From the NCBI GenBank assembly GCA_017624715.1, contig JAGAMN010000033.1, positions 1-57,935 on the forward strand: DNA of 57,935 bases. The letters are read 5' to 3'. The notes under the pieces are model-generated. The model made no database searches. It was not told the DNA's origin and saw nothing but the letters and a program-made list of their open reading frames with translations. A program made the translations under genes and the position numbers. Source of the stretch: Oscillospiraceae bacterium (GTDB lineage: Bacteria; Bacillota; Clostridia; Oscillospirales; Oscillospiraceae). Numbering within the stretch: the first letter of the stretch is position 1; each line of letters begins with the position of its first letter. This document shows, piece after piece, positions 1 through 36,772 of the stretch.

Positions 1-899
1 GATGCAGAGGAACGGAAAGAAATTTGAGAGTAAACCTTACCCTCCTGCACGGCAGTAAGAGAGTTGTAGTAAGCGGGATTTTTAGCGTAGTCTTCTTTTA
101 TAAGATTCATGCCGTTGAAGTCCAGGAAAATAATGTCCGGATTCCAACTTAGCACCTGCTCCAGGTCAATATTGAAGGCACCGCTCTGACCGGTGGTATC
201 TGCCAGATTCTTTGCACCAATCAGCTGGAACGGACCGTAGCCAGCTTCTGTGCCTTCAAATCCGTGATGACCCTTGAAGGATACACCGCCGACATACACA
301 GAGGGCTTGCTGCTTTCCGGAATGTCCTTCGTGCGGTCATCCAGATCCTTTTGTATGCCCTTTAAGTAATTGGTCAGTTCCGTTGCGCGGGTCTGCATAC
401 CATAGAGTTCACCCAAGATACGGATCGTATCGTATGCATTTTGATCCAATGTGGTATCACTGCCGGAGACAACTACAACGGGCGTGCCGGTCTTGGATTG
501 CAGGTCATCTGCTTCCACAGAAGCGGACTTGCTCATTACGATCACATCTGGGGCTAGATTGATGATCTCTTCGGTATAGGGCTGTCCGTTGGTGCCAATC
601 ACAGGAAGATCCTTGAATTTATCAAAATTCACATAGTTGTAAAGACGAGTCATGCCGGGTTTTACTTCATAGTCTTCCACGCCAACCACCAGGTCTTGCG
701 CTCCTACATAACAGGTATACCGTAGAGCGCCAACACCCACGCAGACGATAGATTCCACTTTTTCCGGCACATTTACCTGACGGCCTGCACTATCCGTGAT
801 CGTGCGGGTATTGTCGGCATTTTCGCCGGTGGTTTGGCATCCGGCAAATAGGCTAAGACAAAGAACAGCCAACAGGAAGAATGCAATAATCTTTTTCAT
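1..899 (-). CDS. BtuF/FhuD-like substrate-binding lipoprotein, partial
   Basis: This is the ligand-binding subunit of an iron-siderophore/corrinoid class ABC importer (Peripla_BP_2 fold). The frame opens at the minus-strand ATG at 899 and runs off the left edge, so about 299 codons are visible and the C-terminus is missing. Residues 1-21 are a lipoprotein signal ending in LFAGC, with Cys21 as the lipidation site. The mature protein begins with TRTITDSAGRQVNVPEK and then IVCVG, the usual opening of this family, followed by the repeated 'APDVIV' and 'NPDII' lobe motifs. It is divergent from a cobalamin-riboswitch operon, so a corrinoid ligand is attractive but not shown. Permease and ATPase genes would be expected beyond the edge. 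Confidence 0.85.
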   Translation of the reverse strand, partial: MKKIIAFFLLAVLCLSLFAGCQTTGENADNTRTITDSAGRQVNVPEKVESIVCVGVGALRYTCYVGAQDLVVGVEDYEVKPGMTRLYNYVNFDKFKDLPVIGTNGQPYTEEIINLAPDVIVMSKSASVEADDLQSKTGTPVVVVSGSDTTLDQNAYDTIRILGELYGMQTRATELTNYLKGIQKDLDDRTKDIPESSKPSVYVGGVSFKGHHGFEGTEAGYGPFQLIGAKNLADTTGQSGAFNIDLEQVLSWNPDIIFLDFNGMNLIKEDYAKNPAYYNSLTAVQEGKVYSQISFRSSA

Positions 900-1090: not shown

Positions 1091-1119
1091 TTGACATTTG
1101 CCTTGTATTCGTGTATACT
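1091..1119 (+). promoter_or_regulatory. Promoter of the cobalamin operon
   Basis: TTGACA at 1091-1096 and TATACT at 1114-1119 are separated by exactly 17 bp, a near-consensus housekeeping promoter. Transcription would start near 1126, just before the first riboswitch, so both switches lie in one leader. Confidence 0.8.
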
Positions 1120-1141
1120 GACCGTGCAAGTGAATATTCCG

Positions 1142-1319
1142 TTTGAGTGCCTGCGGACGCGGTAACAGCCCCGTAGGAGAATAGAAAACCGGGTGCGAAT
1201 CCCGGACGGTACCGCCACTGTATGCGTGGAGGTTCTCTATTTGGCGAAAGCCGGTCATTGGGGAAACCTGAGAAGGCTATAGAGAATCGGAGAAACGCAA
1301 GTCAGGAGAACTGCTCAAA
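1142..1319 (+). promoter_or_regulatory. Cobalamin riboswitch 1 (long, RF00174-like)
   Basis: The core motifs of the classical B12 riboswitch appear in order: GGGTGCGAATCCCGG, then CCGCCACTGT, then the B12-box-like AAGTCAGGAGAACTGCTC. The ends pair as TTTGAG (1142-1147) with CTCAAA (1314-1319). A peripheral stem TTCTCTAT/ATAGAGAA lies between the core motifs. About 178 nt long and followed by a terminator, it should switch off transcription when cobalamin is bound. Confidence 0.88.
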
Positions 1320-1380
1320 TGAGGTAAAAACACAAGGGTCTGCAAGTACGGAACCTGTGGTTTTTTGTTGCGGAAAAACG

Positions 1381-1420
1381 GCTGCAGCGACTCTCTTTGT
1401 AGGGTTGCTGCAGCTTTTTT
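1381..1420 (+). terminator. Expression-platform terminator of riboswitch 1
   Basis: GCTGCAGCGAC (1381-1391) pairs with GTTGCTGCAGC (1404-1414) with one G-U pair, followed directly by six T residues. It lies 60 nt after riboswitch 1 and before riboswitch 2. Confidence 0.85.
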
Positions 1421-1421
1421 G

Positions 1422-1481
1422 CTGTGACCGTCTGTGCAGGTCTCATCCCCCTTGACCTGCTGATTGCCTGGACGGTCACAG
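1422..1481 (+). other. Extended hairpin between the two riboswitches
   Basis: CTGTGACCGTC at 1422-1432 pairs perfectly with GACGGTCACAG at 1471-1481, and inside it GCAGGTC (1436-1442) pairs with GACCTGC (1454-1460). There is no T run, so it is not a terminator. It may insulate the folding of the two switches. Confidence 0.6.
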
Positions 1482-1506
1482 TCCGCAAGCCAACTGAATA
1501 TTGCTT

Positions 1507-1600
1507 ATTGGTATAGTGAGGTGATCCGGTTAGAATCCGGAACAACCGTCCATTGCTGTGTTAGCTCTATCGCTTAAGTCAGAGAGCCTGCTATACCAAT
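1507..1600 (+). promoter_or_regulatory. Cobalamin riboswitch 2 (short form)
   Basis: A perfect 10-bp closing stem, ATTGGTATAG (1507-1516) with CTATACCAAT (1591-1600), encloses motifs in the B12-riboswitch order: TCCGGTTAGAATCCGGA (compare GGTGnnAATCC), CCATTGCTGTG (compare CCACTGT), and AAGTCAGAGAGCCTGC (compare the B12 box). At 94 nt it lacks the peripheral helices of switch 1 and resembles the compact class. The assignment rests on motif order and pairing, not on a covariance search. Confidence 0.65.
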
Positions 1601-1624
1601 TGGGTTTATCACGCTTTGACAGGA

Positions 1625-1676
1625 GAGTGTAGCCTTGTTTGTCCGTACTTGAGGGCAAACGGGTTACACTCTTTTT
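1625..1676 (+). terminator. Expression-platform terminator of riboswitch 2
   Basis: A long stem with one bulge pairs GAGTGTAGCC...TTTGTCC with GGGCAAAC...GGGTTACACTC and is followed by TTTTTATTT. It sits 25 nt after riboswitch 2 and 40 nt before the first gene's start codon. Confidence 0.85.
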
Positions 1677-1716
1677 ATTTGCGGGAAAACCACAAAACAG
1701 TAAGGGAGGGATGCAA

Positions 1717-1902
1717 GTGACACCAGAAGAGAAGAAGGCCTGGGCGGAGGACCTTCTACGCCAAAAGTACGCGGAGCTTGGAAAGCTCCCCACGAAAAAA
1801 GACTTCGATAGTGCAACTTGCGCCCAGATCAAGGCATACCTTGGGCCGTGGCCCCGCGCATTGGAGTCTGCTGGGCTGAAACAACCAAAGGACAAGAACT
1901 AA
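1717..1902 (+). CDS. 61-aa HNH-repeat (homing-endonuclease-associated) protein
   Basis: The only recognisable domain is one copy of the homing-endonuclease-associated helical repeat (HNH_repeat type), seen as ELGKLPTKKDF and then AYLGPWPRALESAGL. No nuclease motif is present, so it is probably a small DNA- or protein-binding adaptor. The start is taken as GTG at 1717 because GGGAGGG ends 6 nt upstream; ATG at 1711 abuts that Shine-Dalgarno and longer frames would start inside the terminator. It is the first gene behind the two riboswitches and precedes the surface protein by 34 nt, so it should be expressed when B12 is scarce. Its role is unknown. Confidence 0.65.
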   Translation: MTPEEKKAWAEDLLRQKYAELGKLPTKKDFDSATCAQIKAYLGPWPRALESAGLKQPKDKN

Positions 1903-1936
1903 TTTGTATTCATGCGAATTGGAGGTAATGCAAATA

Positions 1937-4900
1937 ATGAAAAAACGTATTTTAAGTATGCTGCTGGTGCTGATAATGGTAATCAGTATGATTCCGGTTT
2001 CTACATATGCAGCAACTGATGAAACGGTATATATTTCCGTCAGCTTCGATGGAAACTATTTGACAGCCGGAACAGGTACACACAAGGGCAAGCCCATGGT
2101 TTACCTGCCGGTAACAACGAAGGTCCTGAAAAATACCGTCAAGCTGGCCAGCTTTGGGCTGGAAAGCTATAGCTATGATGCTGACGGCGACGGTGCAGAG
2201 GATATTACGGCCCTGCATCTGCTGGTATATGCCCACGAGAAAATCTTCGGCACCAAGTGGAAGAATAATGTGACCATCAGCGGCGAAGCCGGAAACCTGA
2301 CCATTCAAAGCGGCCTGTTTGGCTTTGCTGCCAATATGGCATATAACCTCAACGGCGCTGTGAATTCAACATCCATTGACCGGATTGTCCTGCAGAGCGG
2401 TGATTTTATGGACCTTGCCGGTTACACCACTGGGGATTATAGTAGTGCTCCTTCTGCAGGTTTCCGTTATTTCGTGGATGACCAGAATAAAATCACCCAC
2501 AAGTACACAGCTAAGTTGAATACCCCCTTTACGGTTACTCTGACTCCTGCAGCAGAAAATGCATTGTTCTACAGCCGGACACTCCTTGACTCCAACGCCA
2601 AGACCGTAACCACAGATGCCACGGGCAAGGCCACTATTACATTGGACACCTGCGGTAGCTGGTATCTGTGGTCTTTGGGTGACAGCAATTCCGCCCCTGC
2701 TTATGCGGAAATCTTTGTTCCTTGGGAAAACACGAACAACACAACCGCTTACTGGCCTAACTTCCGCAACAGCCTCTACAACATGGCTATCACCGATGCC
2801 AAGACACCCGTTTCCGCTGCCACCACAGTGGCCAAATGGATTGTTTCCAAAGGCACAAGCTGGACCGATACGCCCAGTGGCATGATTATTGCGGATAACG
2901 CGCTGATCTTTATGGGCCAGACTACGATCACAAAGGCTGACCTGCAGACCGGTGAAGTACTGGCCACAAACAAGATGAATGGCAATGGCGGTTTTAATAT
3001 CATTTCCCCCACCTATGGCGATGGCTTGATTTTCTGCCCTCAGACCGGTGGCAGAATTGAAGCCTTTAATGCAAAGACTCTGGAATCCGTCTGGGTATTC
3101 GTCGATACGGTGGGCGGTCAGAATAACACCCCCATCACTTATCATGACGGCTATGTCTATACCGGCTACTGGAACGGTGAAGCCAAAGACGGCAACTTCG
3201 TCTGCGTCAATGCCGCTACCGGTGAACTGGTGTGGAGTAAGACTACCCTTGGCGGACACTATTGGGCTGGTTCTACCGTGATTGGCGATGCAGTCATCGT
3301 TGGTACCGACGATGGTGCCAGCGGTTGGGAGGGTGACTCCCATCTGTATGCCCTGAATCGTTTGACCGGTGAAGTGATCTCCGATATCACCCTGACCGGT
3401 ATGGGCGACCAGCGCTCCACCATCGCTTACAGTGCCGAAAAGGGTCGTGTGTACTTCACCACCAAGAATGGTTACATTGCTTCCGCCGCTGTGAATCCCG
3501 CTACTGGCGCGCTGTCCGACCTGAAGAGCAATAAGATTTCCTCTCAGGCAACGGCCACCCCCGTTGTGTACGGTGATAAGGTCTATGTTGGCGCAGGCGG
3601 CGGTATGCAGGTGGGCGCTACCAACGGTAACCTCTTTGCGGTAGACGCCAATACTCTGGAATACCTGTACGAAGTTCCGCTGTTAGGCTATCCCCAGGGC
3701 TCTATTTTGATTTCTACCGCCTATTTGGCCGAAACCGGAAAACTATACTGCTACGCCACCTACAATAGCGCACCGGGCGGCATGACCCTCATTAAAATCG
3801 ACCCCAACGCCACCACTGCCGATGGTGCTCAGCTGGAAGAGATTTTTGATGCCGGTACCCACCCCCAGTACTGCCTGATTAGTCCCATCTGCGGTCCTGA
3901 CGGCACGATTTATTACCGTAATGACAGCGGTTGCCTGTTCGCTCTGACCACCAACAATTCCTACCTGACCGGCATCTCCGCTTCTATAGGTACATTTACA
4001 AAGGAATTCGCACCAGGCCGCCACGACTATGAGTTGGTGGTGCCCGTAGGAACCCAGAGTGTCACATTGATGCCCACTGCCTGCGAAGGCGGTGTTACTC
4101 AGGCAGTTACGGCCACCCTGTTAGACGGTGCTGCTACCGCAACAATAGTCGTGACGAAGGGCAATGATTCCCGTACTTATACCGTGTCTGTGCGCTCCGT
4201 ATCCCAAAATGCTTCTTTGGGCAGTTTGAAAGTCAACCAAACCAACTCTTATGGCGGTACAGTCAGCCCGGAAGTTACACCCGAAGAGCATTATTACACC
4301 TTCCTCACCGCTGGTGCCACACGGACATTTATGAATGTATGGCCGGATGTGGCAGAAAGCCACGCTTCTTTGAAAGTATTCCTCATGGATAACGCAACAG
4401 GTAAGGATGAGAAAGAAATTGCCGAAGATGGCAGCCTGAAGGATACCGCAACCAGCAACGGCCACGACCGCTACGCGGTTTACTTTGTAGATGGGAATAA
4501 GCCTATGGCTGTTCGTATCGAGGTAACCTCTGAAAATGGCGAAGTGGACAATTATTATCTGGTCATCAGCAAGGCCGCTGCTGCAGAAGAAGGCAAAGCA
4601 CTTTTGGAAAGAATCAAAGCTGACAACAAACTGGCTGCCAATCAAGCCGTGGCTGATTCTGTAATTGCTTTGATTGATTCTATTGGCACTGTTACGCTGG
4701 ATTCTAAAACAGCTATCGAAGCAGCTCGCACCGCATACGATACATTAACCGCTGAGCAGAAGGCCTTGGTTACCAACTACGAAACCCTAACCAATGCCGA
4801 AACCGCACTGAAAGCTTTGCAGGATGCCGCTAATAAGGCTGCTGCTGATAAAGCCGCCGCTGACCCTGTGATTGAACAAATCAATGCTCTCGGCACTGTC

Positions 4901-5368
4901 ACGCTGGATTCCAAGGCAGCTATTGAAGCGGCCCGTGCTGCTTACGACGCACTGACCACTGAGCAGAAAACTTTGGTTACTAACTATGAAACCTTGACTG
5001 CTGCTGAGGCTTCTTTGAAAGCGCTGCAGGATGCCGCAGATAAAGCTGCTGCTGATAAAGCTGCCGCTGATGCGGTTACCGAAAAGATTGCCGCCATCGG
5101 TACTGTTACCAAAGATTCCAAGACTGCTATTGAGTCCGCCCGCGCTGCCTACGATGCATTAACCGCTGAGCAGAAAACCTTGGTTACCAACTACGAAACC
5201 CTGACGGCTGCCGAAAAAGTACTTACTGATTTGAATAAACCTGTTAATCCCGACAATCCCAAGACCGGTGACAGCACCAATATTATGCTATATACCACCA
5301 TTATGCTGGTATCCCTTATGGCTATTGCAGCACTGCTGCTGACTTCCAAGAAGAAGTACAACCACTAA
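1937..5368 (+). CDS. Cell-wall-anchored PQQ/YncE-like propeller protein
   Basis: A 1143-aa exported surface protein. Residues 1-25 are a signal peptide. A globular N-terminal region follows (to about 250), containing MAYNLNG, which faintly recalls the DUF4430 'YsVNG' segment. Residues 299-675 show beta-propeller repeats of the PQQ-like type, with units such as 'FNAKTLESVW' and 'VNAATGELVW'. Two cadherin-like beta-sandwich domains follow (about 676-875), then three near-identical helical repeats of about 65 aa (880-1095), and finally NPKTGD at 1107-1112, a hydrophobic segment and KKKYNH, a sortase signal. The start at 1937 is preferred because GGAGG at 1921-1925 is correctly spaced and it begins the signal peptide. 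Its place in a B12-riboswitch operon suggests corrinoid capture at the wall; that is inference. Confidence 0.8.
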   Translation: MKKRILSMLLVLIMVISMIPVSTYAATDETVYISVSFDGNYLTAGTGTHKGKPMVYLPVTTKVLKNTVKLASFGLESYSYDADGDGAEDITALHLLVYAHEKIFGTKWKNNVTISGEAGNLTIQSGLFGFAANMAYNLNGAVNSTSIDRIVLQSGDFMDLAGYTTGDYSSAPSAGFRYFVDDQNKITHKYTAKLNTPFTVTLTPAAENALFYSRTLLDSNAKTVTTDATGKATITLDTCGSWYLWSLGDSNSAPAYAEIFVPWENTNNTTAYWPNFRNSLYNMAITDAKTPVSAATTVAKWIVSKGTSWTDTPSGMIIADNALIFMGQTTITKADLQTGEVLATNKMNGNGGFNIISPTYGDGLIFCPQTGGRIEAFNAKTLESVWVFVDTVGGQNNTPITYHDGYVYTGYWNGEAKDGNFVCVNAATGELVWSKTTLGGHYWAGSTVIGDAVIVGTDDGASGWEGDSHLYALNRLTGEVISDITLTGMGDQRSTIAYSAEKGRVYFTTKNGYIASAAVNPATGALSDLKSNKISSQATATPVVYGDKVYVGAGGGMQVGATNGNLFAVDANTLEYLYEVPLLGYPQGSILISTAYLAETGKLYCYATYNSAPGGMTLIKIDPNATTADGAQLEEIFDAGTHPQYCLISPICGPDGTIYYRNDSGCLFALTTNNSYLTGISASIGTFTKEFAPGRHDYELVVPVGTQSVTLMPTACEGGVTQAVTATLLDGAATATIVVTKGNDSRTYTVSVRSVSQNASLGSLKVNQTNSYGGTVSPEVTPEEHYYTFLTAGATRTFMNVWPDVAESHASLKVFLMDNATGKDEKEIAEDGSLKDTATSNGHDRYAVYFVDGNKPMAVRIEVTSENGEVDNYYLVISKAAAAEEGKALLERIKADNKLAANQAVADSVIALIDSIGTVTLDSKTAIEAARTAYDTLTAEQKALVTNYETLTNAETALKALQDAANKAAADKAAADPVIEQINALGTVTLDSKAAIEAARAAYDALTTEQKTLVTNYETLTAAEASLKALQDAADKAAADKAAADAVTEKIAAIGTVTKDSKTAIESARAAYDALTAEQKTLVTNYETLTAAEKVLTDLNKPVNPDNPKTGDSTNIMLYTTIMLVSLMAIAALLLTSKKKYNH

Positions 5369-5380
5369 AAAAATACAATC

Positions 5381-5403
5381 GGAGGGCAGGATTCCTGCCC
5401 TCC
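5381..5403 (+). terminator. Intergenic hairpin after the surface protein
   Basis: GGAGGGCAGG (5381-5390) pairs perfectly with CCTGCCCTCC (5394-5403) around a 3-nt loop, 12 nt after the stop codon. No T run follows, so it may be a processing or mRNA-stability hairpin that lowers expression of downstream genes rather than a full terminator. Confidence 0.5.
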
Positions 5404-5518
5404 ACCTAAATCTAAATTTGAAAACTGATGCATTTGCATTTGATATATGCTATCGGTCATTTTTGACTGGTGAGTTTTGCGTTTTATCGTATGGACGAAA
5501 TATCCGGGAGGTTGCAAT

Positions 5519-7228
5519 ATGAAAAAGAAGCAGATTGCCAATTTGATTATGGTTGCCGTTATTTTGCTGATCGTGGCGGGCGGTGTTTTAGGTGTGGGTT
5601 ATATTCGGGGCTGGTTTGATACAGCGTCGGAGACTATTGCCTGTCTGACACAAATTCAAGGCACCGTCAATCTGGAACGGAGCGGTGTGATTTATCCAGT
5701 GGCAGAAGATACCGTTCTTCATGGTGGCGACAAAATTACAACAAATCCCGGTGCCACTGCAATCATTCGCAGAGGTGAGGATACTGTGGTACTGGGTGGG
5801 AATATGGAGCTGACCGTAACCGACCCGGGAACAAAGCAGTTCACCTTGAAAGTTACGAAGGGTGAGGTGTTTGTGAGCAGTCAGCAAAGCGTGCTGCTTT
5901 CTTTTGCACTGGGAGAAGCTACTGTGGAAAATGCCACCGCAGCCCTTAGTGTTCGTGACGGTGCGCAAACCGTCAGTGTCTTCCGTGGAGAGGTTGGCGA
6001 AGCAAAAGCGGGACAGGCAACAGAGTATGTTGGAGAGTCTGTCTCCACCCGAAATATGAAACTGGAAGGCATGAATGATTTCCTCCTTGCGCAGATTCGG
6101 AAAGCCAACAATACCATTACCCTTTGCTATACCAATCAGGATCTGGACAATCTGGAAGCCAAACGCCAGCAGGCGATTCAGGATATGCTGAACGGTCAGA
6201 CAAACCCGGATGCACATACCCATAGCTATACTGTTTCGGTTGTTGAACCCAACTGCAATGCAGGCGGCTATACAGAATATACCTGCGAATGCGGTGACAA
6301 ATACCGGGCAGAAGAAACTGCAGCACTGGCACATGTTTGGGGCCCCTGGACAACCCAAAAGCCTGCGACGCCCCAAGAGGAAGGCTTGCAAAAACGAACC
6401 TGTTCCAATTGTCAGGCAGCGGAAGAAAAGAAAACCGATAAACTCACTGAAAATCATACCCACAGCTATACATCTCAAGTTATCGAACCGACCTGCACTG
6501 CGGAAGGCTATACCGTTCATACCTGTGCATGCGGTCATACCTATACAAGCGATTCTGTGTCAAAAAAGAACCACAGCTATACATCCCAGGTTGTAAAGCC
6601 CACCTGCGAGAACCAAGGCTATACAGTTCACAAATGCGCTTGCGGCAAAACATATACCGATTCTGTAATCCAGCCTGCCGGTCATACCTGGGGCGATTGG
6701 AAGACGGTCAAAGAAGCTACCGAAACAGCCGAAGGTCAGAGAGAACGAACCTGCTCCGCTTGTGCAAAAAAAGAACAGCAATCCATCGCCAAGAAGGAAC
6801 CGGGAATCGCAGGTTATGTGAGCATCCAGATTCGCTGTGATACAATTCTGGGTAATATGGACGATCTGACTCCCGGCAAGGCAGAGTTTGTGCCGTCCAA
6901 TGGTATTATTCTGCCAATGGTGGAAGTGCCCTTCTACGAAAATGAAACTGTTTTTGAGGTGTTAAATCGCATTTGTAAGAAGACCAATATCCAAATTGAG
7001 TACAGCTGGACACCCCTATACGGAAGCTACTATATCGAAGGTATCAACCATCTGTATGAGTTTGATTGCGGTGAGCAATCCGGCTGGATGTATAAGGTCA
7101 ACGAATGGTTCCCCAACTATGGCTGTTCCAGCTACTATGTGGAGGATGGAGATGTAATCGTCTGGTGCTATACCTGTAAAGGCTTAGGCGTAGATGTGGG
7201 CTGCGAGTGGATGGGCCAAGAAGGATGA
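5519..7228 (+). CDS. FecR-like / Cys-repeat / DUF4430 (transcobalamin-like) membrane protein
   Basis: A 569-aa membrane-anchored surface protein. A single N-terminal membrane segment (about 7-28) is followed by a FecR-like beta domain (about 40-155: 'GTVNLERSG', 'VLHGGDKITTN'). Three Cys/His repeats of the HSYTxxVxxPTC...CxCG type and two RTCSxC units lie at 231-424. The C-terminal domain (about 430-558) is DUF4430-like: 'ETVFEVLNRI', 'QSGWMYKVNEWFP', 'VEDGDVIVWCY'. DUF4430 is related to the C-terminal domain of transcobalamin and intrinsic factor. The start at 5519 has GGGAGG 7 nt upstream. Its stop overlaps the ATG of the first EcfT gene, tying it to the transporter. A corrinoid-binding role is inferred from the domain and riboswitch. 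Confidence 0.82.
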   Translation: MKKKQIANLIMVAVILLIVAGGVLGVGYIRGWFDTASETIACLTQIQGTVNLERSGVIYPVAEDTVLHGGDKITTNPGATAIIRRGEDTVVLGGNMELTVTDPGTKQFTLKVTKGEVFVSSQQSVLLSFALGEATVENATAALSVRDGAQTVSVFRGEVGEAKAGQATEYVGESVSTRNMKLEGMNDFLLAQIRKANNTITLCYTNQDLDNLEAKRQQAIQDMLNGQTNPDAHTHSYTVSVVEPNCNAGGYTEYTCECGDKYRAEETAALAHVWGPWTTQKPATPQEEGLQKRTCSNCQAAEEKKTDKLTENHTHSYTSQVIEPTCTAEGYTVHTCACGHTYTSDSVSKKNHSYTSQVVKPTCENQGYTVHKCACGKTYTDSVIQPAGHTWGDWKTVKEATETAEGQRERTCSACAKKEQQSIAKKEPGIAGYVSIQIRCDTILGNMDDLTPGKAEFVPSNGIILPMVEVPFYENETVFEVLNRICKKTNIQIEYSWTPLYGSYYIEGINHLYEFDCGEQSGWMYKVNEWFPNYGCSSYYVEDGDVIVWCYTCKGLGVDVGCEWMGQEG

Positions 7229-8100
7229 GAGATGCGTTTTCCAAATGCCACCCGGCGGTAAACTTCCTGTTTTTCGTGGGTGCTATCGGCATGTCGGTGG
7301 TGATCCAGCATCCGGCTTACTTGCTTGTCGGGTTACTGACGGGGGCAATCTATTATCTACTCCTGAACGGCAAACGGGGCTTGAAAACAATATTGGGATT
7401 GCTGCCTGTGTTTATCATCCTAACGGTCATCAATCCACTTCTGAATACTTTGGGTGCCACACCGCTTTTTTACCTCGGAAGCAGGCCATACACACTGGAG
7501 GCTCTGCTTTACGGTGCAGTAACTGCCTGTATGTTCGTAGCGATACTGCTTTGGTTCGGCTGCTACAACAAGGTGCTGACCAGCGACAAATTTACTTGCT
7601 TGTTCGGCAATCTGATTCCCTCTATTTCATTGCTTCTTGTGATGGTATTCCGGATGGTTCCCAATTTCATCCGAAAAACACAGCAGATTATTGGAGCAAG
7701 AAAGTCCATCGGTAAAGGCATCAGCGAAACCGCAACTACAAAGGAAAAGCTGATCAGCGGCGGGACTGTATTGGGTGCCTTAACGGGCTGGGCCTTGGAG
7801 GGCAGTGTTGTCACCGGCGATTCTATGCGTGCCCGGGGCTACGGCACAGCGAAACGCAGTAGCTTTATGATTTATCGTATGACCTGGGCAGACTGGATTT
7901 TGCTGGCTGTTATGCTTACTTTGCTTGGAGTTACCATTGTTGCAGCCTGCTCGGGTCAATTTGCCGCCGAGTTTGTTCCGGCGATTGAACTTGCGCCTAT
8001 TTCTTGGGGTTTAGCAGCCTATACCTGCTATCTGCTGATTCCCCCTGCATTACATATAAAGGAGGCCATTCAATGGCACATTTCCAGATCAAAGATTTGA
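7225..8100 (+). CDS. ECF transporter T component (first copy)
   Basis: A 291-aa integral membrane protein of the EcfT family, which couples ATP hydrolysis to movement of the S component. It has several hydrophobic segments and the two EcfT coupling-helix motifs, here GARKSIGKG and SMRARGYG, which contact the ATPases. The ATG at 7225 overlaps the preceding stop (ATGA), so translation is coupled; AAGAAGG is just upstream. Its 3' end overlaps the ATPase gene by 28 nt. The N-terminus (DAFSKCHPAVNF) is very like that of the second T gene downstream (GFEKCHPAVNF), so the two are paralogues. Confidence 0.9.
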   Translation: MRDAFSKCHPAVNFLFFVGAIGMSVVIQHPAYLLVGLLTGAIYYLLLNGKRGLKTILGLLPVFIILTVINPLLNTLGATPLFYLGSRPYTLEALLYGAVTACMFVAILLWFGCYNKVLTSDKFTCLFGNLIPSISLLLVMVFRMVPNFIRKTQQIIGARKSIGKGISETATTKEKLISGGTVLGALTGWALEGSVVTGDSMRARGYGTAKRSSFMIYRMTWADWILLAVMLTLLGVTIVAACSGQFAAEFVPAIELAPISWGLAAYTCYLLIPPALHIKEAIQWHISRSKI

Positions 8101-9731
8101 GTTTTTCATATCCCACCGCCAAAGGCAAAAAGTCCCTGGATGGTGTGAGCCTGTCCATCGAAAAGGGCGAATATATTGTTTTGTGTGGTAAGTCCGGCAG
8201 CGGCAAGACCACGCTTCTGCGGCAGCTGAAATCCGTTCTTGCTCCTCACGGCAAAAAGCAAGGCGAAATTCTGTTTAATGGAACACCCATTGAGAAGGTC
8301 AATCAGCGAGTTCAATCTGCCAAAATCGGTTATGTGATGCAGAATCCCGATGACCAGATTGTCACCGATAAGGTATGGCACGAATTAGCTTTCGGCTTGG
8401 AAAGCCTCGGTTGTGACCAGAAAACTATGCGTGCTCGGGTTGCAGAAATGGCTTGCTATTTTGGTATTCAGGATTGGTTCCATCGGGATGTTGCCAATCT
8501 ATCCGGCGGTCAGAAGCAGCTTTTGAACCTGGCTTCCATTATGGCCATGCAGCCGGAGATTCTGATCCTGGACGAGCCTACCAGCCAATTAGACCCCATT
8601 GCAGCCTCCGATTTTTTGAACACAGTACGAAAAATCAATATAGAACTGGGTACCACCGTGATCATCACCGAACACCGGTTAGAGGATATTTTCCCTTATG
8701 CTGACCGGGCTGTTGTGATGGATGGCGGCAAGATCATCGCGGATGATACCCCGCGGAATATCGGCAAGCTCTTGTACAAACAGAAAAACGATATGTTCGC
8801 CGCTATGCCTACCCCCATCCGGGTGTTCTACGGCGCAGGTGGCAACGGCGATTGCCCTCTGACCGTTCGCGAGGGCAGAACCTGGCTCAGTAAGACCTAT
8901 CCCGAACCTATGGTAAACATACTGCCTGCCGAAGAATTGGATGATGAAATCGAGAAACCTGCTCTTTCTCTGAAAGAACTGTGGTTCCGATACGAAAAGG
9001 ACAGCCCGGATGTGCTCCGGGGCGTGTCAGCAGATGTTCCTGCAGGCACTCTGTACGCCATTGTGGGTGGAAACGGTGCAGGTAAGTCAACTACCTTAAA
9101 GGCTGTCTGTGGTATTTGCAAGCCCTACCGGGGTAAGGTAAAAGTGTTCGGCAAGCCGGTGGAAAAATACAAATCTACGGAGCTATTCGGTGGCTGTCTT
9201 GCCATGCTGCCCCAGGACCCCAAGAGCCTGTTCGTCAAAAAAACAGTCCGGGAAGATCTTGCGGAAATGACGAAGGACGAAAAAAGAATTGCAGAGATTG
9301 CGGCAGTTTGCGAAATAAAAAGCCTGCTGAGCAGTCATCCCTATGACCTCTCCGGAGGTGAGCAACAGCGAGCCGCTTTGGCAAAGGTTCTGTTGACCGA
9401 GCCCAGGCTTCTTCTGTTGGATGAACCTACCAAAGGTATCGACAGCTTCTTTAAGGAAAAGCTGGCTACCATTCTGTGCAAGCTGAAAGAACAAGGCATT
9501 ACCATCGTGATGGTATCTCACGATGTGGAGTTCTGCGCGAAATATGCAGATATGGTTTCTATGTTCTTCGACGGGCAGATGCTGACCACCGATACCCCTC
9601 GTCGCTTCTTTGGCAATAACAGCTTCTATACAACCGCTGCCAACCGTATGAGCCGACATGTTTTTTCTATGGCTGTCACTGCTGAAGATGTGGTGGAACT
9701 GTGCCGTCAGAACAAGGAGGCTGCAGTATGA
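8073..9731 (+). CDS. ECF transporter fused A1-A2 ATPase
   Basis: A 552-aa protein holding two complete ABC ATPase domains in one chain, replacing separate EcfA1 and EcfA2. Domain 1 has Walker A GKSGSGKTT (39-47), signature LSGGQKQ and Walker B ILILDEPTS. Domain 2 has GGNGAGKST, LSGGEQQ and LLLLDEPTK. The Q-loops (VMQNPDDQ and MLPQDPKS) are of the EcfA type. The start at 8073 has AAAGGAGG 7 nt upstream and lies inside the T gene; the stop overlaps the S gene start (ATGA). It energises the cobalamin ECF complex encoded around it. Confidence 0.93.
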   Translation: MAHFQIKDLSFSYPTAKGKKSLDGVSLSIEKGEYIVLCGKSGSGKTTLLRQLKSVLAPHGKKQGEILFNGTPIEKVNQRVQSAKIGYVMQNPDDQIVTDKVWHELAFGLESLGCDQKTMRARVAEMACYFGIQDWFHRDVANLSGGQKQLLNLASIMAMQPEILILDEPTSQLDPIAASDFLNTVRKINIELGTTVIITEHRLEDIFPYADRAVVMDGGKIIADDTPRNIGKLLYKQKNDMFAAMPTPIRVFYGAGGNGDCPLTVREGRTWLSKTYPEPMVNILPAEELDDEIEKPALSLKELWFRYEKDSPDVLRGVSADVPAGTLYAIVGGNGAGKSTTLKAVCGICKPYRGKVKVFGKPVEKYKSTELFGGCLAMLPQDPKSLFVKKTVREDLAEMTKDEKRIAEIAAVCEIKSLLSSHPYDLSGGEQQRAALAKVLLTEPRLLLLDEPTKGIDSFFKEKLATILCKLKEQGITIVMVSHDVEFCAKYADMVSMFFDGQMLTTDTPRRFFGNNSFYTTAANRMSRHVFSMAVTAEDVVELCRQNKEAAV

Positions 9732-10432
9732 AAAAATCAAACATTGCGACCCTGATCGTATTCTTTCTGCTGCTCCCTGTTACTTTATTCTTGGGCAGTA
9801 AGCTACCAGGTAGAGGCTACTACATTACCGGTACCGCGATCATCATTGAACTGATGATTCCATTCTTTATGGCCTTTGAGGGCAGACGCCCTCAGGCAAG
9901 AGAGCTGGTGGTCATCGCAGTGATGTGCGCCATTGCCATTGCAGGTCGTTCAGCGATTCCTATTCCTAATTTCAAGGCTATTTTCGCAATCATTATGCTC
10001 AGTGGAATTGCCTTCGGTCCGGAAGCAGGTTTTATGGTGGGTGCGATTTCTGCATTCGCCAGTAACTTTTTCTACGGTCAAGGTGCATATACGCCCTGGC
10101 AGATGATGGCCTACGGAGCCGGTGGTATGCTGGCCGGTTTCTGTTTTGCGAATGGCAGACTTCCAAAAAAGCCGCTTACCATTGCAGTGTTCGGTTTTTT
10201 GGCAACAATCCTCTGGGTTGGACCGCTGCTGGATTGCTCGCATATTTTCCTGATGGTGAGCGTCATCAACTGGAATTCCATAATTGCAGCATTTGTTTCC
10301 GGATTCCCAGTGAACCTCAGTCAAGGAATCTGCACCGTACTGGTTATGCTGCTGTTTGGCAGACCTTTACTTGACAAACTGGACCGGATCAAGGTTAAGT
10401 ACGGCATGATGGAGGATGAAAATGGGCTTTGA
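9728..10432 (+). CDS. ECF transporter S component, probable cobalamin (CbrT-type)
   Basis: A 234-aa membrane protein with about six hydrophobic segments, the substrate-binding component of the ECF complex. Segments such as IAFGPEAGFMVGAISAF, TPWQMMAYGAGG and FPVNLSQG are typical of the ECF_trnsprt family that includes the cobalamin S protein CbrT. AAGGAGG precedes the ATG by 7 nt, and that ATG overlaps the ATPase stop. The ligand is assigned from context (two B12 riboswitches and a DUF4430 protein in the same operon); sequence alone would not separate cobalamin from related vitamins. Confidence 0.82.
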   Translation: MKKSNIATLIVFFLLLPVTLFLGSKLPGRGYYITGTAIIIELMIPFFMAFEGRRPQARELVVIAVMCAIAIAGRSAIPIPNFKAIFAIIMLSGIAFGPEAGFMVGAISAFASNFFYGQGAYTPWQMMAYGAGGMLAGFCFANGRLPKKPLTIAVFGFLATILWVGPLLDCSHIFLMVSVINWNSIIAAFVSGFPVNLSQGICTVLVMLLFGRPLLDKLDRIKVKYGMMEDENGL

Positions 10433-11303
10433 AAAATGCCATCCTGCGGTGAATTTCATCTATTTCACCACCGTGATTGCCGGGATGATCGTATTTAAGC
10501 ATCCCATCTTTCTGCTGATATCCTTTGTCTGTGCTTTTATTTACAGCATCAAACGAAACGGCCTCAAAGCACTGGTGTTCAATGTCATTTTGCTTCCCTG
10601 CGTTGCAGCATATGCCTTTTATTACAGCAGCTACAATCATTTTGGCGTAACGGTGCTGCAGCAAAACATGATTGGTAACAACATGACCCTGGAAAGCCTT
10701 GTGTACGGTTTCGTTTTAGGTTTTGTAATCGCCGGTGTGCTGATTTGGTTTTCTTGTGTGTACTCCGTGTTTACCACAGACAAAGTAGTGTACCTCTTTG
10801 GCAAAGTCAGCCCCCGTCTTTCTCTATTTCTGGCAATTATTTTACGAATGGTGCCGAGAATTAAGAAGGAAGCCGAGAAAATCAACACTGCTCAGCGTGG
10901 CATTGGCCGGGGTGCCAATCAAGGCAATGTCTTTCAGCGGTTGCGTAACAGTATTCGTATTCTTTCCATGCTGATAACTTGGACGATTGATTCCCTGACG
11001 CTTGTTTCGGAATCCATGCGCAGCCGTGGAAGCTCGCTACGGGGCAGAAAGGCTTTTTCCATCTATCGCTTTGACAACCGGGACCGGGCTTATGTGGTGA
11101 GTAACTTTGCCTGCTTGACCGTGATTTTTATGGCGGTCATGCTGAAGCAAACAGATATTCTCTACGATCCCCGGATTCTTATGAACCCGATTACAACTAT
11201 GTCCTACCTGTTCTATGTTGGCTATGCAGTGTTCTGCCTGATGCCTCTGGGCTTGGAACTATGGACGGAATACCGCTTCTGGAAAGCAAGAAAAGTACTG
11301 TGA
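10422..11303 (+). CDS. ECF transporter T component (second copy)
   Basis: A 293-aa EcfT-family protein, paralogous to the one encoded at 7225-8100. It carries the coupling motifs TAQRGIGRG and SMRSRGSS. In the second of these, the usual ARG is SRG, while the first T has ARG. The start is placed at ATG 10422, 6 nt after GGAGG (10411-10415), and overlaps the S gene by 11 nt. Most ECF transporters use one T protein, so this complex could be a T heterodimer, or the two T proteins could serve different S proteins. Confidence 0.88.
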   Translation: MGFEKCHPAVNFIYFTTVIAGMIVFKHPIFLLISFVCAFIYSIKRNGLKALVFNVILLPCVAAYAFYYSSYNHFGVTVLQQNMIGNNMTLESLVYGFVLGFVIAGVLIWFSCVYSVFTTDKVVYLFGKVSPRLSLFLAIILRMVPRIKKEAEKINTAQRGIGRGANQGNVFQRLRNSIRILSMLITWTIDSLTLVSESMRSRGSSLRGRKAFSIYRFDNRDRAYVVSNFACLTVIFMAVMLKQTDILYDPRILMNPITTMSYLFYVGYAVFCLMPLGLELWTEYRFWKARKVL

Positions 11304-11313
11304 GAATATGGAA

Positions 11314-11350
11314 AACCGGCGGTGAGACTCAAATAATCTCACCGCCGGTT
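11314..11350 (+). terminator. Hairpin ending the cobalamin operon
   Basis: AACCGGCGGTGAGA (11314-11327) and TCTCACCGCCGGTT (11337-11350) form a perfect 14-bp stem 11 nt after the last T gene. The T run is poor on both strands, so this is a likely 3' end or mRNA-stabilising hairpin shared by convergent genes. Confidence 0.65.
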
Positions 11351-27120: not shown

Positions 27121-27299
27121 TTGCAATGATATATCGCATTCGCGATATGATATACGGCAATGCCGTGTGATATATTTGCGATGCAAATACGATATAATAT
27201 CCGTTCCTTCATATGCCGAAGGCATATATCATCGCATAACATTGCGATATCATATCGAAGATATATCACCCGTTCCGAAAGGAACGGATATCATTGCAA
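27121..27299. repeat. Nested palindrome array with TGATAT spacers
   Basis: TTGCAATGATAT (27121-27132) and ATATCATTGCAA (27288-27299) are a perfect 12-bp inverted repeat closing a 179-bp block. Inside are small hairpins (ATCGC/GCGAT, ACGGC/GCCGT, ATTTGC/GCAAAT, ATATGCC/GGCATAT, CCGTTCC/GGAACGG), each separated by a TGATAT-like spacer or its complement. The block sits 46 nt upstream of the four-helix-bundle gene and ends at the tRNA-Gly terminator. It is not a CRISPR: the hairpin arms differ and spacers are only 7 bp. Confidence 0.85.
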
Positions 27300-34897: not shown

Positions 34898-35632
34898 ATG
34901 TCCGGACATTCCAAATGGCATAACATTCAAAAAACCAAGGGCGCACAGGACGCTAAGCGCGCTGCTGCCTTTACCAAGATCGCTAAGGAGCTGATCGTGG
35001 CAGTTAAGGAAGGCGGCGGCATCACCGATCCTGCCAATAACTCCCGCCTGGCCACCGTCATCACCAAGGCCAAGGCCGCCAACATGCCCAACGACAACAT
35101 CAAGCGCTGCCTGGAGAAGGCTGCCGGTGCCGGCGGCGGTGACAACTATGAATCCATCACCTACGAAGGCTACGGTCCCGGCGGTGTTGCCGTTATCGTA
35201 GAAACCATGACCGACAACCGCAACCGTACTGCTGGCTCCATGCGTCACCACTTTGACAAGTTTGGCGGCAACCTGGGTGCTTCCGGCTGCGTCAGCTGGT
35301 CCTTCGACAAGAAGGGCGTGCTGGTCATCGACAACGAGGACGGCGACTACGATGAAGACACCGTCATGATGGACGCCATGGACTGCGGTGCTGACGATTT
35401 CGAAGCTGAGGAAGATTGCTTCACCATTTACACCGATCCCGATGACTTCAATGCTGTGGCCGATGCAATGGCCGCTAAGAAGTACACCTTTGCTTCCGCT
35501 CAGATCGAGATGGTTCCCCAGAACTATCAGAAGCTGGAAAACGAGGAGCACATCAAGCTGATGGAAAAGCTCATCGACATCATGGAAGAAGATGACGATG
35601 TGCAGAACATCTGGCACAACTGGGAAGAATAA
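34898..35632 (+). CDS. yebC: YebC/PmpR-family translation/transcription factor
   Basis: A 244-aa YebC-family protein. It has the invariant start MSGHSKWHNIQKTKGAQDAK, 'IVAVKEGGGITDPANNSRL', 'YEGYGPGGVAVIVETMTDN' and the acidic late segment 'DNEDGDYDEDTVMMDAMDCG'. Members were named as regulators, and recent work links some to easing ribosome stalls. AAGGGAAG precedes the ATG. It has its own terminator. Confidence 0.96.
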   Translation: MSGHSKWHNIQKTKGAQDAKRAAAFTKIAKELIVAVKEGGGITDPANNSRLATVITKAKAANMPNDNIKRCLEKAAGAGGGDNYESITYEGYGPGGVAVIVETMTDNRNRTAGSMRHHFDKFGGNLGASGCVSWSFDKKGVLVIDNEDGDYDEDTVMMDAMDCGADDFEAEEDCFTIYTDPDDFNAVADAMAAKKYTFASAQIEMVPQNYQKLENEEHIKLMEKLIDIMEEDDDVQNIWHNWEE

Positions 35633-35642
35633 TCGTATAAAA

Positions 35643-35671
35643 ATCACCCTGCCGGCGGCAGGGTGATTTTA
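35643..35671. terminator. Terminator after yebC
   Basis: ATCACCCTGCC (35643-35653) and GGCAGGGTGAT (35657-35667) form a perfect stem followed by TTTAC on the plus strand and TTTTTATACG on the minus strand. It serves both convergent genes. Confidence 0.88.
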
Positions 35672-35675
35672 CTTT

Positions 35676-36683
35676 TCATGTAGTTTCCGGGGCCACAGAT
35701 TCCGTAGGCTCAATACTCACCGTGGGTTCGACGCTCTCCGTCGGTTCGACGCTCTCCGTCGGTTCGACGCTCTCTGTCGGTTCGACGCTCTCTGTCGGTT
35801 CGATGCTCTCTGTGGGTTCGATGCTCTCGGACGGTTCAACACTTTCCGAGGGTTCGACGCTTTCAGAAGGTTCGATGCTTTCGGAAGGCTCTGTGCTTTC
35901 GCCAGGCTCTGTGCCTTCAGAGGGTTCTGTACCTCCAGAGGGCTCTGTGCTCTCAGAAGGATCGCTGGGATCGGAGGGCTCCGTCTCGCCACCCACAGGA
36001 CGGGTTTCCACAGTAGAACAGGTGCTGCAGGTCCGGGTCTCCTTGGTCTCATCCGCGGGATCGAGGGCCCACTCCCCAAAGGCATGGCCAGATGCAGTAA
36101 TGGTCTTCACATTCTTCGTTCTGCCACAAGCGGTGCATCTATCCCGATCATAGCCGTTTTCCGTACAGGTGGCATCCTTATGCTCGGCCTGATAGTTGTG
36201 GGCAACGGTGGCAATGGGATCCTTCAAATCCGTCAGCTTGCAGCGCCGGCAGGTGAACAAATTGCCGCCCTGCTCAGTGCAGGTGGGCGATTTCTGAACG
36301 CCACCATCCCAGTCATGGCCCAAAGGATCCACCATATCCATGATCTTGGACTGGCCGCATTCACACAGGTAAATGCCGTAACCGGGACCGGTACAAGTAG
36401 CCTCCGCTTTGCGGATCAAAGTAGTGTAGGCGTGCTCATGACCCGTTTCGGTGGGCTGTGTTACCTCTGTTGTAGGCTCAATGCTTTCAGTAGGCTCAAT
36501 GCTCTCGGTAGGCGTAACACTTTCAGAAGGCTCGGTGCTTTCCGCCTGAGGCGGAGTGATAGAGGGTGTAGCCATCATAGCCTGGAGCATCGGTGCGATC
36601 CGGCCGATAACAACGCAGCCAATAACGATTGTCATCAACAAAAAGCCGCACATGATGACCGTAAGAATTTTCTTTAAAGACAT
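35676..36683 (-). CDS. Membrane-anchored protein with Cys repeats and Glu/Pro/Ser tail
   Basis: A 335-aa exported protein. One N-terminal membrane segment (about 5-28) is followed by a Pro/Thr/Glu spacer. Cys/His repeats (about 80-215) come next, with HEHAYTTLIRKAEATC, LCECG, CTACGR and 'RTCSTCSTVETRP', likely Zn-binding. The last 115 residues are a low-complexity tail of six-residue units such as SVEPTE and SIEPSE. The start at 36683 has AAAGGAGT 8 nt upstream; the frame extends 6 codons further without an RBS. The function is unknown. The Cys repeats resemble those in the DUF4430 protein at 5519-7228. Confidence 0.75.
   Translation of the reverse strand: MSLKKILTVIMCGFLLMTIVIGCVVIGRIAPMLQAMMATPSITPPQAESTEPSESVTPTESIEPTESIEPTTEVTQPTETGHEHAYTTLIRKAEATCTGPGYGIYLCECGQSKIMDMVDPLGHDWDGGVQKSPTCTEQGGNLFTCRRCKLTDLKDPIATVAHNYQAEHKDATCTENGYDRDRCTACGRTKNVKTITASGHAFGEWALDPADETKETRTCSTCSTVETRPVGGETEPSDPSDPSESTEPSGGTEPSEGTEPGESTEPSESIEPSESVEPSESVEPSESIEPTESIEPTESVEPTESVEPTESVEPTESVEPTVSIEPTESVAPETT
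35705..35950. repeat. 18-bp tandem repeat encoding the Glu/Pro/Ser tail
   Basis: Units of the form GGTTCGACGCTCTCCGTC recur with an 18-bp period. The copies around 35727-35810 are nearly identical and those to 35950 are more divergent. The period is a multiple of three, so copy-number change keeps the reading frame. Confidence 0.85.
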
Positions 36684-36772
36684 TTGGGGCACTCCTTTCA
36701 ATTTCTATCATTATAGCGCTAAAAAAACGCAATTGCAACCCCGAGAATCCATTTACGCGTAAAATCCCAAAC

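What the first reader, a model, noticed from the sequence alone, without database searches (positions are those of the whole stretch)
1091..11350. Complete Gram-positive B12 capture-and-import locus under double riboswitch control
Seen: two cobalamin-riboswitch-like elements, then a sortase-anchored propeller protein, a membrane-anchored DUF4430 protein, and ECF T, A-A, S and T genes with overlapping starts and stops, plus a divergent BtuF-like lipoprotein. Known: DUF4430 is related to the transcobalamin/intrinsic-factor C-terminal domain, and CbrT-type ECF transporters import cobalamin. Inference: wall protein and DUF4430 protein pass corrinoids to the ECF complex.
Basis: partly seen in the sequence, partly recalled or inferred. 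Interest (0 to 1): 0.8.

Follow-up and report, generated by a model that had tools for sequence, protein, structure and literature searches.

The report
Gram-positive vitamin B12 capture-and-import operon
This is a bacterial gene set, probably switched by two RNA sensors of vitamin B12, that very probably catches B12-type molecules at the cell surface with relatives of our own B12-carrier proteins and imports them; the general idea was predicted in 2007, but the build of this version is unusual and testable.

Summary
A promoter-like site and a strong cobalamin riboswitch (RF00174, 87 bits) with terminator are followed by a second, compact cobalamin-type riboswitch with its own terminator-like hairpin. 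The second is below Rfam's cut-off in the window, but its stem covaries in 10 aligned sequences. The S protein's best solved relative is the B12 transporter CbrT (6fnp, E 1.8e-8).

In 80 named relatives found by DUF4430, a cobalamin-riboswitch hit lies in 59 (42 of 46 loci of at least 15 kb) and ECF genes in 68. Neighbours include CobT, CobS, CobU, CbiR-like and CbiZ. In the loci scanned with all of Rfam, no other riboswitch leads the operon.

Burroughs et al. (2007) already predicted this kind of system. New here: 47 of 80 relatives carry a transcobalamin-like toroid; the propeller may take its place (rarely together, though both occur in this genome's sister locus). Sister loci use cohesin/dockerin. 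The two riboswitches carry complementary hairpin loops. The divergent "BtuF" has no shown B12 link. No binding was tested.

The parts
1091..1119 (+). sigma-70-like promoter TTGACA-17-TATACT
   Evidence: 11 of 12 matches, consensus scan
1128..1332 (+). cobalamin riboswitch 1 (R1)
   Evidence: RF00174 87.0 bits, E 4e-20
1343..1352 (+). loop decamer CAAGTACGGA of the hairpin after R1, reverse complement of 1642-1651
   Evidence: motif CTGCAAGTACGG also after R1-type switches in loci without an R2 hit
1380..1421 (+). intrinsic terminator of R1
   Evidence: 15-pair stem and T run
1490..1620 (+). compact cobalamin-type riboswitch 2 (R2)
   Evidence: RF01482 27.3 bits, sub-threshold; 8 of 32 pairs with double-sided change in 10 sequences; related elements in L070 pass RF00174 cut-off
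1626..1676 (+). terminator-like hairpin of R2; loop TCCGTACTTG at 1642-1651
   Evidence: fold, coordinates; loop CCGTACTTG in 11 of 11 genomes whose R2 keeps this hairpin, window included
1717..1902 (+). HNH_repeat mini-protein (61 aa, GTG start after GGAGG)
   Evidence: PF18780 E 4e-11 (scanned from 1711); follows R2 in the tandem relatives; in 15 of 80 named loci
1937..5368 (+). cell-wall surface protein, 1143 aa: N-domain, PQQ-type beta-propeller, cadherin-like, three helical repeats, NPKTG sorting signal
2753..3946 (+). beta-propeller part (aa 273-670)
   Evidence: PQQ_2 E 1.6e-13; aa 273-670 conserved in L037 and L069 proteins
5255..5365 (+). NPKTG sortase-type sorting signal
   Evidence: TIGR01167 19.9 bits (cut-off 15.9), TIGR03063 19.0 (cut-off 18.15)
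5519..7228 (+). membrane-anchored DUF4430 (transcobalamin C-terminal / SLBB clade) protein, 569 aa
   Evidence: PF14478 E 3.8e-18; FecR-like part only E 0.048
6944..7174 (+). DUF4430 domain (aa 476-552)
   Evidence: alignment A4 of 24 sequences, SGW..N..P invariant
7225..8100 (+). ECF T component 1
   Evidence: T1 homologues also match T2 at about 30% identity; no Pfam family over cut-off
8073..9731 (+). fused duplicated ECF ATPase A-A'
   Evidence: TIGR04520 349.6 bits, cut-off 315
9728..10432 (+). ECF S component, CbrT-like
   Evidence: best PDB sequence match 6fnp_A E 1.8e-8 (6FNP is ECF-CbrT); PF07155 E 4e-13 and PF12822 E 6e-10, both over cut-off
10422..11303 (+). ECF T component 2 (CbiQ family)
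   Evidence: PF02361 25.9 bits, cut-off 25
11314..11350 (+). perfect inverted repeat after the last gene, probable operon end
   Evidence: AACCGGCGGTGAGA...TCTCACCGCCGGTT read
3..899 (-). divergent FecB/PF01497-type lipoprotein, cut by contig end; B12 role not shown
   Evidence: PF01497 E 1.3e-24; relative locus carries FecCD, ABC and FmdE beside it

Best explanation
When internal cobalamin is low, two tandem transcription-terminating cobalamin riboswitches let transcription through to the surface and transport genes (inferred from the anatomy). A sortase-linked beta-propeller wall protein and a membrane-anchored DUF4430 protein (the transcobalamin/intrinsic-factor beta-domain family) catch corrinoids outside the membrane (inferred), and pass them to the CbrT-like S component (inferred), which the A-A'/T module drives across the membrane (family knowledge). 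In 47 of 80 relatives a transcobalamin-type alpha/alpha toroid accompanies DUF4430; here the propeller may fill that place. Sister loci add CobT-CobU-CobS-CobC-like and CbiR-like genes, so imported cobamides or cobinamide are probably completed or remodelled.
For: R1 is strong and R2 covaries. S has CbrT as its best solved relative. Of 80 named loci found by DUF4430 alone, 59 carry a cobalamin-riboswitch hit and 68 have ECF genes; in loci of at least 15 kb, 42 of 46 and 42 of 46. In 49 of 80 the switch lies upstream (up to 9 kb) of a DUF4430 gene on its strand without an opposing gene between. Of the 100 of 259 neighbour proteins scanned, 7 are CobT, 6 CobS, 5 CobU, 2 CbiZ and 8 CbiR-like. Toroid and DUF4430 sit in one protein in L050, L051, L054, L161 and L188 in transcobalamin order. 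Propeller and DUF4430 are fused in L067, L128, L134, L138, L149, L158, L169 and L171. Toroid and propeller rarely share a locus: 5 both, 42 toroid only, 16 propeller only, 17 neither, of 80 (Fisher p 2.3e-4). The genome has a corrinoid methyltransferase cluster, no CbiD match, and a second such locus with CobT-CobU-CobS.
Against: No ligand-binding or transport data. DUF4430 alignment A4 found no solved relative by sequence (best E 0.5), so the tie to transcobalamin rests on Pfam membership and on papers. The toroid's clear sequence relatives are terpene cyclases; Pfam's eukaryotic cobalamin-binding family matched only 1 of 35 at E 0.022. R1-model hits are absent in 21 of 80 loci (some cut by contig ends), and 3 of 7 weak-scoring loci re-tested with Rfam had no cobalamin match at gathering; of 38 loci around S homologues only 17 had one over cut-off. 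Against the replacement idea: this genome's own sister locus L037, and L069, carry both a propeller and a toroid; in 53 window-side loci 2 have both, 14 toroid only, 4 propeller only, 33 neither, too few propellers to test. Loci are related by descent, so the p-values overstate independence.
Confidence: 0.8

Rival explanations
1. Same operon, but the surface proteins do not clamp the corrinoid: the propeller wall protein is an adhesin or structural scaffold that merely rides in the operon, and only DUF4430 plus the S component handle B12.
For: Large surface proteins of these loci vary greatly in body (propeller, toroid, LRR, Big_2, SLH, dockerin); the sister locus L037 has propeller and toroid together, so the propeller need not be the clamp; propellers of the PQQ_2 type are common all-purpose scaffolds (family knowledge).
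Against: Propeller and DUF4430 are fused in one chain in several relatives; the propeller is rarely found with the toroid in the 80 named loci; in L043 the wall gene lies directly behind a riboswitch, divergent from the transporter.
Confidence: 0.35
2. The system imports a different tetrapyrrole or cofactor precursor (cobinamide, benzimidazole-type lower ligands, haem or cobalt) rather than complete cobamides.
For: CbrT itself also carries cobinamide (PMC5997447, passages); CobU/CobS/CobT/CobC-like genes next to the transporter would complete cobinamide; CbiQ-family T proteins are named for cobalt transport.
Against: A transcobalamin-type capture module points to a whole corrinoid; S resembles CbrT above all other solved S components. 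Cobinamide is a sub-case rather than a contradiction.
Confidence: 0.2
3. R2 is a degenerate, non-functional riboswitch remnant, so control is single rather than double.
For: 27.3 bits, below the RF01482 cut-off, and not listed by RF00174 or RF01482 in the genome search; shorter than R1.
Against: Stem kept by double-sided changes in 10 aligned sequences; its terminator-like hairpin and loop are conserved in 11 genomes; related elements in L070 pass the RF00174 cut-off.
Confidence: 0.1

Closest known systems
Bacterial transcobalamin-clade SLBB (DUF4430) surface proteins with CbiO/CbiQ genes (Burroughs et al. 2007, PMC1796856; passages read)
   Same: Transcobalamin-clade domain on surface proteins, fused to an alpha/alpha toroid or a beta-propeller, in operons with CbiO-like ATPase and CbiQ-like membrane protein; predicted to scavenge B12.
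   Different: In the passages seen there is no riboswitch, CbrT-type S component, HNH_repeat gene, CobTSU/CbiR linkage, cohesin-dockerin, or toroid/propeller exclusivity.
ECF-CbrT (Lactobacillus delbrueckii; PMC5997447, passages); CbrUVT of gut genomes (PMC6593275, passages)
   Same: S component most similar to CbrT among solved structures; B12 import context.
   Different: L. delbrueckii CbrT shares one ECF module with other S components (group II); here a dedicated A-A' fusion and two T genes lie in the operon, with surface capture proteins in front.
'Additional lipoprotein component of putative cobalamin ECF transporter' (annotation seen in PMC9963975, passages); the same paper places a DUF4430 gene near rtpR
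   Same: A lipoprotein was already annotated as part of a cobalamin ECF transporter, and a DUF4430 gene was noted near rtpR; the passages do not say that these are one protein.
   Different: Here the DUF4430 protein has a membrane anchor and long extra regions, and a wall-anchored partner.
Animal transcobalamin / intrinsic factor
   Same: DUF4430 family in the C-terminal region (PMC4350170, passage); relatives L050 and L054 have toroid then DUF4430, the same order.
   Different: The window operon has no toroid; sequence similarity of toroids is at the terpene-cyclase superfamily level only.
Bacteroidetes BtuG/BtuH surface B12 binders (PMC8941943, search listing only; BtuG as a propeller is recalled)
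   Same: Works like: surface capture of B12 before an importer, with a propeller in BtuG (recalled).
   Different: Gram-negative outer-membrane system; no sequence relation was tested here.

Membership tests
Class-I cobalamin riboswitch (RF00174) | covariance model match over cut-off | tested here: met
   R1 87.0 bits vs 31.5
Class-I cobalamin riboswitch (RF00174) | ligand-dependent switching | not testable with these tools
   needs in-line probing or transcription assay
AdoCbl riboswitch RF01482 (R2) | covariance model match over cut-off | tested here: not met
   27.3 bits vs 50; so R2 is described as cobalamin-type, not filed as RF01482
Compact cobalamin-type riboswitch (R2) | conserved core and covarying stem in relatives | tested here: met
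   8 of 32 pairs with double-sided change, 10 sequences; related elements over RF00174 cut-off
ECF transporter | A-A', T and S subunits | tested here: met
   TIGR04520 over cut-off for A-A'; CbiQ PF02361 over cut-off for T2, PF07155 and PF12822 over cut-off for S
CbrT-type cobalamin ECF | S component closest to CbrT | tested here: met
   6fnp_A E 1.8e-8, next solved match 0.034; 6FNP is ECF-CbrT
CbrT-type cobalamin ECF | imports cobalamin | not testable with these tools
   no assay
Transcobalamin-clade SLBB / DUF4430 | PF14478 domain | tested here: met
   66.1 bits vs 23.8
Transcobalamin-like two-domain binder (toroid + DUF4430) | alpha/alpha toroid in the same protein or locus | tested here: not met
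   none among the window operon's proteins by Pfam; present in 47 of 80 relatives and in the own-genome sister locus
Sortase-anchored wall protein | sorting motif and C-terminal anchor | tested here: met
   NPKTG; TIGR01167 and TIGR03063 over cut-off; a sortase gene in the genome was not sought
BtuF (divergent gene) | B12-specific binding protein, with BtuCD or B12 control | tested here: inconclusive
   generic PF01497; relative has FecCD, ABC and FmdE; no riboswitch on its strand in the window

The most novel reading that the evidence does not exclude
A Gram-positive 'transcobalamin' in which a wall-anchored beta-propeller has replaced the alpha/alpha toroid as the second half of the corrinoid clamp opposite DUF4430; its transcription is gated by two cobalamin riboswitches that touch each other through kissing of their perfectly complementary (9-10 nt) hairpin loops; and the sister locus of the same genome builds the capture layer as a cohesin-dockerin assembly.
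Probability: 0.15. Interest if true: 0.85.

Novelty: new variant of a known kind. Interest (0 to 1): 0.55.

Why it matters
Identification of B12 transport systems in many gut genomes was called an open problem in PMC6593275 (passage read), and animal transcobalamin was proposed in 2007 to have come from Gram-positive bacteria (PMC1796856, passages). This family gives concrete proteins (for example the 554-aa toroid-DUF4430 protein of L050/L188, next to a CbrT-like S gene) with which to test whether bacteria use intrinsic-factor-like carriers, how a carrier hands B12 to an ECF transporter, and whether a propeller can take the toroid's place. It would also bear on competition for B12 in the gut.

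Tried and rejected
The idea that the wall protein's N-domain is a hidden DUF4430 was tested by profile comparison and dropped (probability 11%); the N-domain found no convincing solved relative (best E 0.22). A direct sequence link of DUF4430 or the toroid to solved transcobalamin was sought and not found. The FecR-like part of the DUF4430 protein is weak (E 0.048) and is not claimed. Cross-kissing of the two riboswitches as the sole reason for the R1 loop was rejected: the same R1 loop occurs in loci where no R2 was found. Absence of corrin synthesis rests on one family, CbiD, in a genome 86% complete. Searches for tandem cobalamin riboswitches in print found none (six phrases), and for cohesin + dockerin + cobalamin only 7 papers, judged by listing alone; the library lacks most subscription papers and all preprints.

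Counts to weigh: A8 holds 100 of 259 neighbour proteins, all on the + strand and chosen by me; A9 holds 34 of the 80 large proteins listed plus the window's. L121, L122, L150, L164 and L191 have the contig lengths and genes of L108, L043, L042, L040 and L067, so the two locus sets overlap. The DUF4430, toroid, propeller and N-domain profiles were built wholly or mainly from window-side loci and then applied to the 80 (the toroid profile was iterated over both sets).

Full report
WHAT IS THERE. The window is contig C23 of a 2.27-Mb genome, 86% complete. On the + strand, 1091-11350 holds a promoter-like site, a class-I cobalamin riboswitch (RF00174, 87 bits) with a terminator, a second compact cobalamin-type element with its own terminator-like hairpin, a 61-aa HNH_repeat gene, a 1143-aa propeller wall protein with an NPKTG tail, a 569-aa membrane-anchored DUF4430 protein, and T, A-A', S and T genes with overlapping ends. 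On the minus strand a PF01497 lipoprotein gene is cut by the contig end.

THE SECOND RIBOSWITCH. R2 scores 27.3 bits against RF01482, below its cut-off of 50, and the genome-wide searches with RF00174 and RF01482 did not list it. A search of 136 genomes of the genus with the leader DNA gave R2 relatives with the same hairpin in 10 further genomes, some of them cut at a contig end. In 10 aligned copies (window and 9 relatives), 8 of 32 predicted pairs change on both sides and stay paired. Two related elements in another family of the order (L070) pass the RF00174 cut-off. R2 is therefore treated as a real cobalamin-type switch, without filing it under RF01482.

A POSSIBLE LINK BETWEEN THE TWO SWITCHES. 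The hairpin loop after R1 (CAAGTACGGA, 1343-1352) is the exact reverse complement of the R2 hairpin loop (TCCGTACTTG, 1642-1651). It is the only such 10-mer pair in 1120-1700 outside two hairpin stems. All 9 complete tandem leaders that I compared keep 9 nt or more of it, with duplex energies of -14.4 to -19.3 kcal/mol, against -1.0 to -5.2 for each loop with its own aptamer loop L5. The R1 aptamer loop with the R2 hairpin loop gives -2.5 to -8.3, so other cross-contacts are possible too. Shuffled loops reach 9 nt in 47 of 200,000 trials. The R2 loop is kept in 11 of 11 genomes that have the hairpin and is absent from the two R2-like elements of L070 and from the shortened R2 of L117. Against: the R1 loop motif also occurs behind R1-type switches in loci where no R2 was found, and neither loop varies enough to covary. 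That class-I switches use an L5-L13 loop contact is recalled, not tested.

RELATIVES IN THE SAME ORDER. S homologues occur in 56 of 99 genomes searched, the own genome included. Of 38 fetched loci around them (L037, L039-L075), 17 carry an RF00174 match over cut-off; several of the loci are cut by contig ends. The other Rfam families found in these 38 were a TPP switch downstream of the cob genes in L037, a T-box leader in L054, a pemK element in L047 and tRNAs; by position none leads the operon.

NAMED RELATIVES. My model of the cobalamin core (built from 20 Rfam-recognised copies on window-side loci) hits 59 of the 80, worst E 0.004; in loci of at least 15 kb, 42 of 46. ECF genes are in 68 of 80, and 42 of 46. 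Rfam itself, run on 15 of the 21 loci without a model hit, found two tRNAs and no riboswitch. Run on 7 loci with low-scoring hits, it confirmed 4 and gave no cobalamin match in 3. The remaining 58 of the 80 were not scanned with the other Rfam families. For scale, riboswitches of this family number 166 in 61 genomes of the genus, about 0.03 per 20 kb.

NEIGHBOURS. Of 100 of 259 neighbour proteins, 7 are CobT, 6 CobS, 5 CobU and 2 CbiZ, 5 carry cohesins, and 12 are TIM-barrel proteins; 8 proteins match CbiR (the one CbiR score shown, 46 bits, is below the cut-off of 105). One of 35 large proteins scanned matches class II B12-dependent ribonucleotide reductase. In L188 the order is T, AA, TIM barrel, CobT, CobU, CobS, CobC-like, HNH_repeat, then a 554-aa toroid-DUF4430 protein, S and T.

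TOROID AND PROPELLER. A toroid profile grown from the 332-aa lipoprotein of L037 finds one in 47 of the 80 loci; the propeller profile finds 21; both occur in 5 and neither in 17. Fisher's test gives p 2.3e-4 for all 80, and 2e-6 for the 57 loci of at least 12 kb (3 both, 34 toroid only, 14 propeller only, 6 neither); relatedness is not corrected. In 53 window-side loci, 2 have both (L037, the own genome's sister locus, and L069), 14 toroid only, 4 propeller only and 33 neither, so the two can occur side by side. DUF4430 shares a chain with the toroid (A-D in 5 proteins, D-A in 9, others) or with the propeller (D-P in 5, D-P-A in 2, W-P-D in 2 that are one contig). The toroid is of the Prenyltrans/SQHop superfamily (31 of 35 members match SQHop_cyclase_C at E 0.1 or better; best solved relative E 1.7e-12). 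A link to eukaryotic cobalamin binders is only 1 of 35 at E 0.022.

THE SAME GENOME. Contig C43 carries three RF00174 matches, two of them over cut-off, at 35111-36725. Behind them lies a row of + strand genes: a dockerin protein with a weak N-domain match, a cohesin protein, a dockerin protein, a cohesin-dockerin protein, a repeat protein, a 1229-aa protein with a weak DUF4430 profile match and no Pfam hit, MoxR, DUF58-like (below cut-off), transglutaminase, a 1507-aa propeller-dockerin protein, a toroid lipoprotein, a DUF4430 lipoprotein, T, AA'-S fusion, CobT, CobU, CobS and a CobC-like phosphatase. Whether this is one transcript is not known. The genome also has a corrinoid protein with two URO-D methyltransferase-type genes and a RACo-type activator and no CbiD match. 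This fits a corrinoid user that does not make the ring, with the caution of 86% completeness.

THE DIVERGENT GENE. In the relative G143 the lipoprotein gene (89% identical) is followed by FecCD, an ABC ATPase and an FmdE protein. With no riboswitch on its strand in the window, its substrate is open; iron, haem, metal or corrinoid are all possible.

WHAT IS KNOWN. Burroughs et al. 2007 (PMC1796856, passages) already describe the transcobalamin-clade domain on Gram-positive surfaces, fused to a toroid or propeller, in operons with CbiO/CbiQ genes, predict B12 scavenging, and propose that animals obtained transcobalamin from these bacteria. PMC4350170 (passage) ties DUF4430 to the transcobalamin C-terminus. 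PMC9963975 (passages) shows an existing annotation 'Additional lipoprotein component of putative cobalamin ECF transporter' and a DUF4430 gene near rtpR. PMC5997447 (passages) shows that CbrT transports cobalamin and cobinamide. The tandem-switch leader with HNH_repeat gene, the toroid/propeller exclusivity, the link with CobTSU/CbiR-like genes and the cohesin-dockerin sister island were not in the passages I read; searches listed no paper that I recognised as describing them in this open-licence library, judged by listings.

VERDICT. A well-supported corrinoid capture-and-import operon (0.8); corrinoid binding and hand-over by the surface proteins are inferred. New variant of a known kind; interest 0.55.

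Noticed in passing
same genome, contig C43, about 35111-69000 (L036, L207, L037): Cobalamin-riboswitch-led row of surface genes with cohesins, dockerins, MoxR/DUF58-like/transglutaminase, propeller-dockerin, toroid and DUF4430 lipoproteins, ECF genes and CobT-CobU-CobS-CobC-like: a possible cohesin-dockerin B12 capture layer.
   Followed up: partly
window 1717-1902; L050 6496-6687, L070 14184-14480, L071 2150-2389 and 15 of 80 named loci: HNH_repeat mini-protein recurring at the head of, or inside, cobalamin-riboswitch operons; function unknown, perhaps a DNA-binding regulator.
   Followed up: partly
same genome, contig C64:65652-65872 (L038 5653-6957): A further riboswitch locus: cobalamin riboswitch, then a small lipoprotein and a small membrane protein, neither with a Pfam match; by eye they resemble a DUF4430-like lipoprotein and an ECF S component.
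   Followed up: partly
L071 5268-5891 and L113 9701-10327 (lower strand): Small cohesin genes between a dockerin-bearing wall protein and the DUF4430 lipoprotein.
   Followed up: partly
window 27221-27296 (minus): Gut-1 sRNA (RF01706), 53 bits against a cut-off of 50, next to tRNA-Gly.
   Followed up: no
L201 5288-8680 (G143:C80): FecB-type lipoprotein, FecCD, ABC ATPase and FmdE in a row, divergent from the B12 leader.
   Followed up: partly
L067 / L191: 1705-aa protein with N-domain, propeller and DUF4430 in one chain, directly behind a cobalamin riboswitch.
   Followed up: yes
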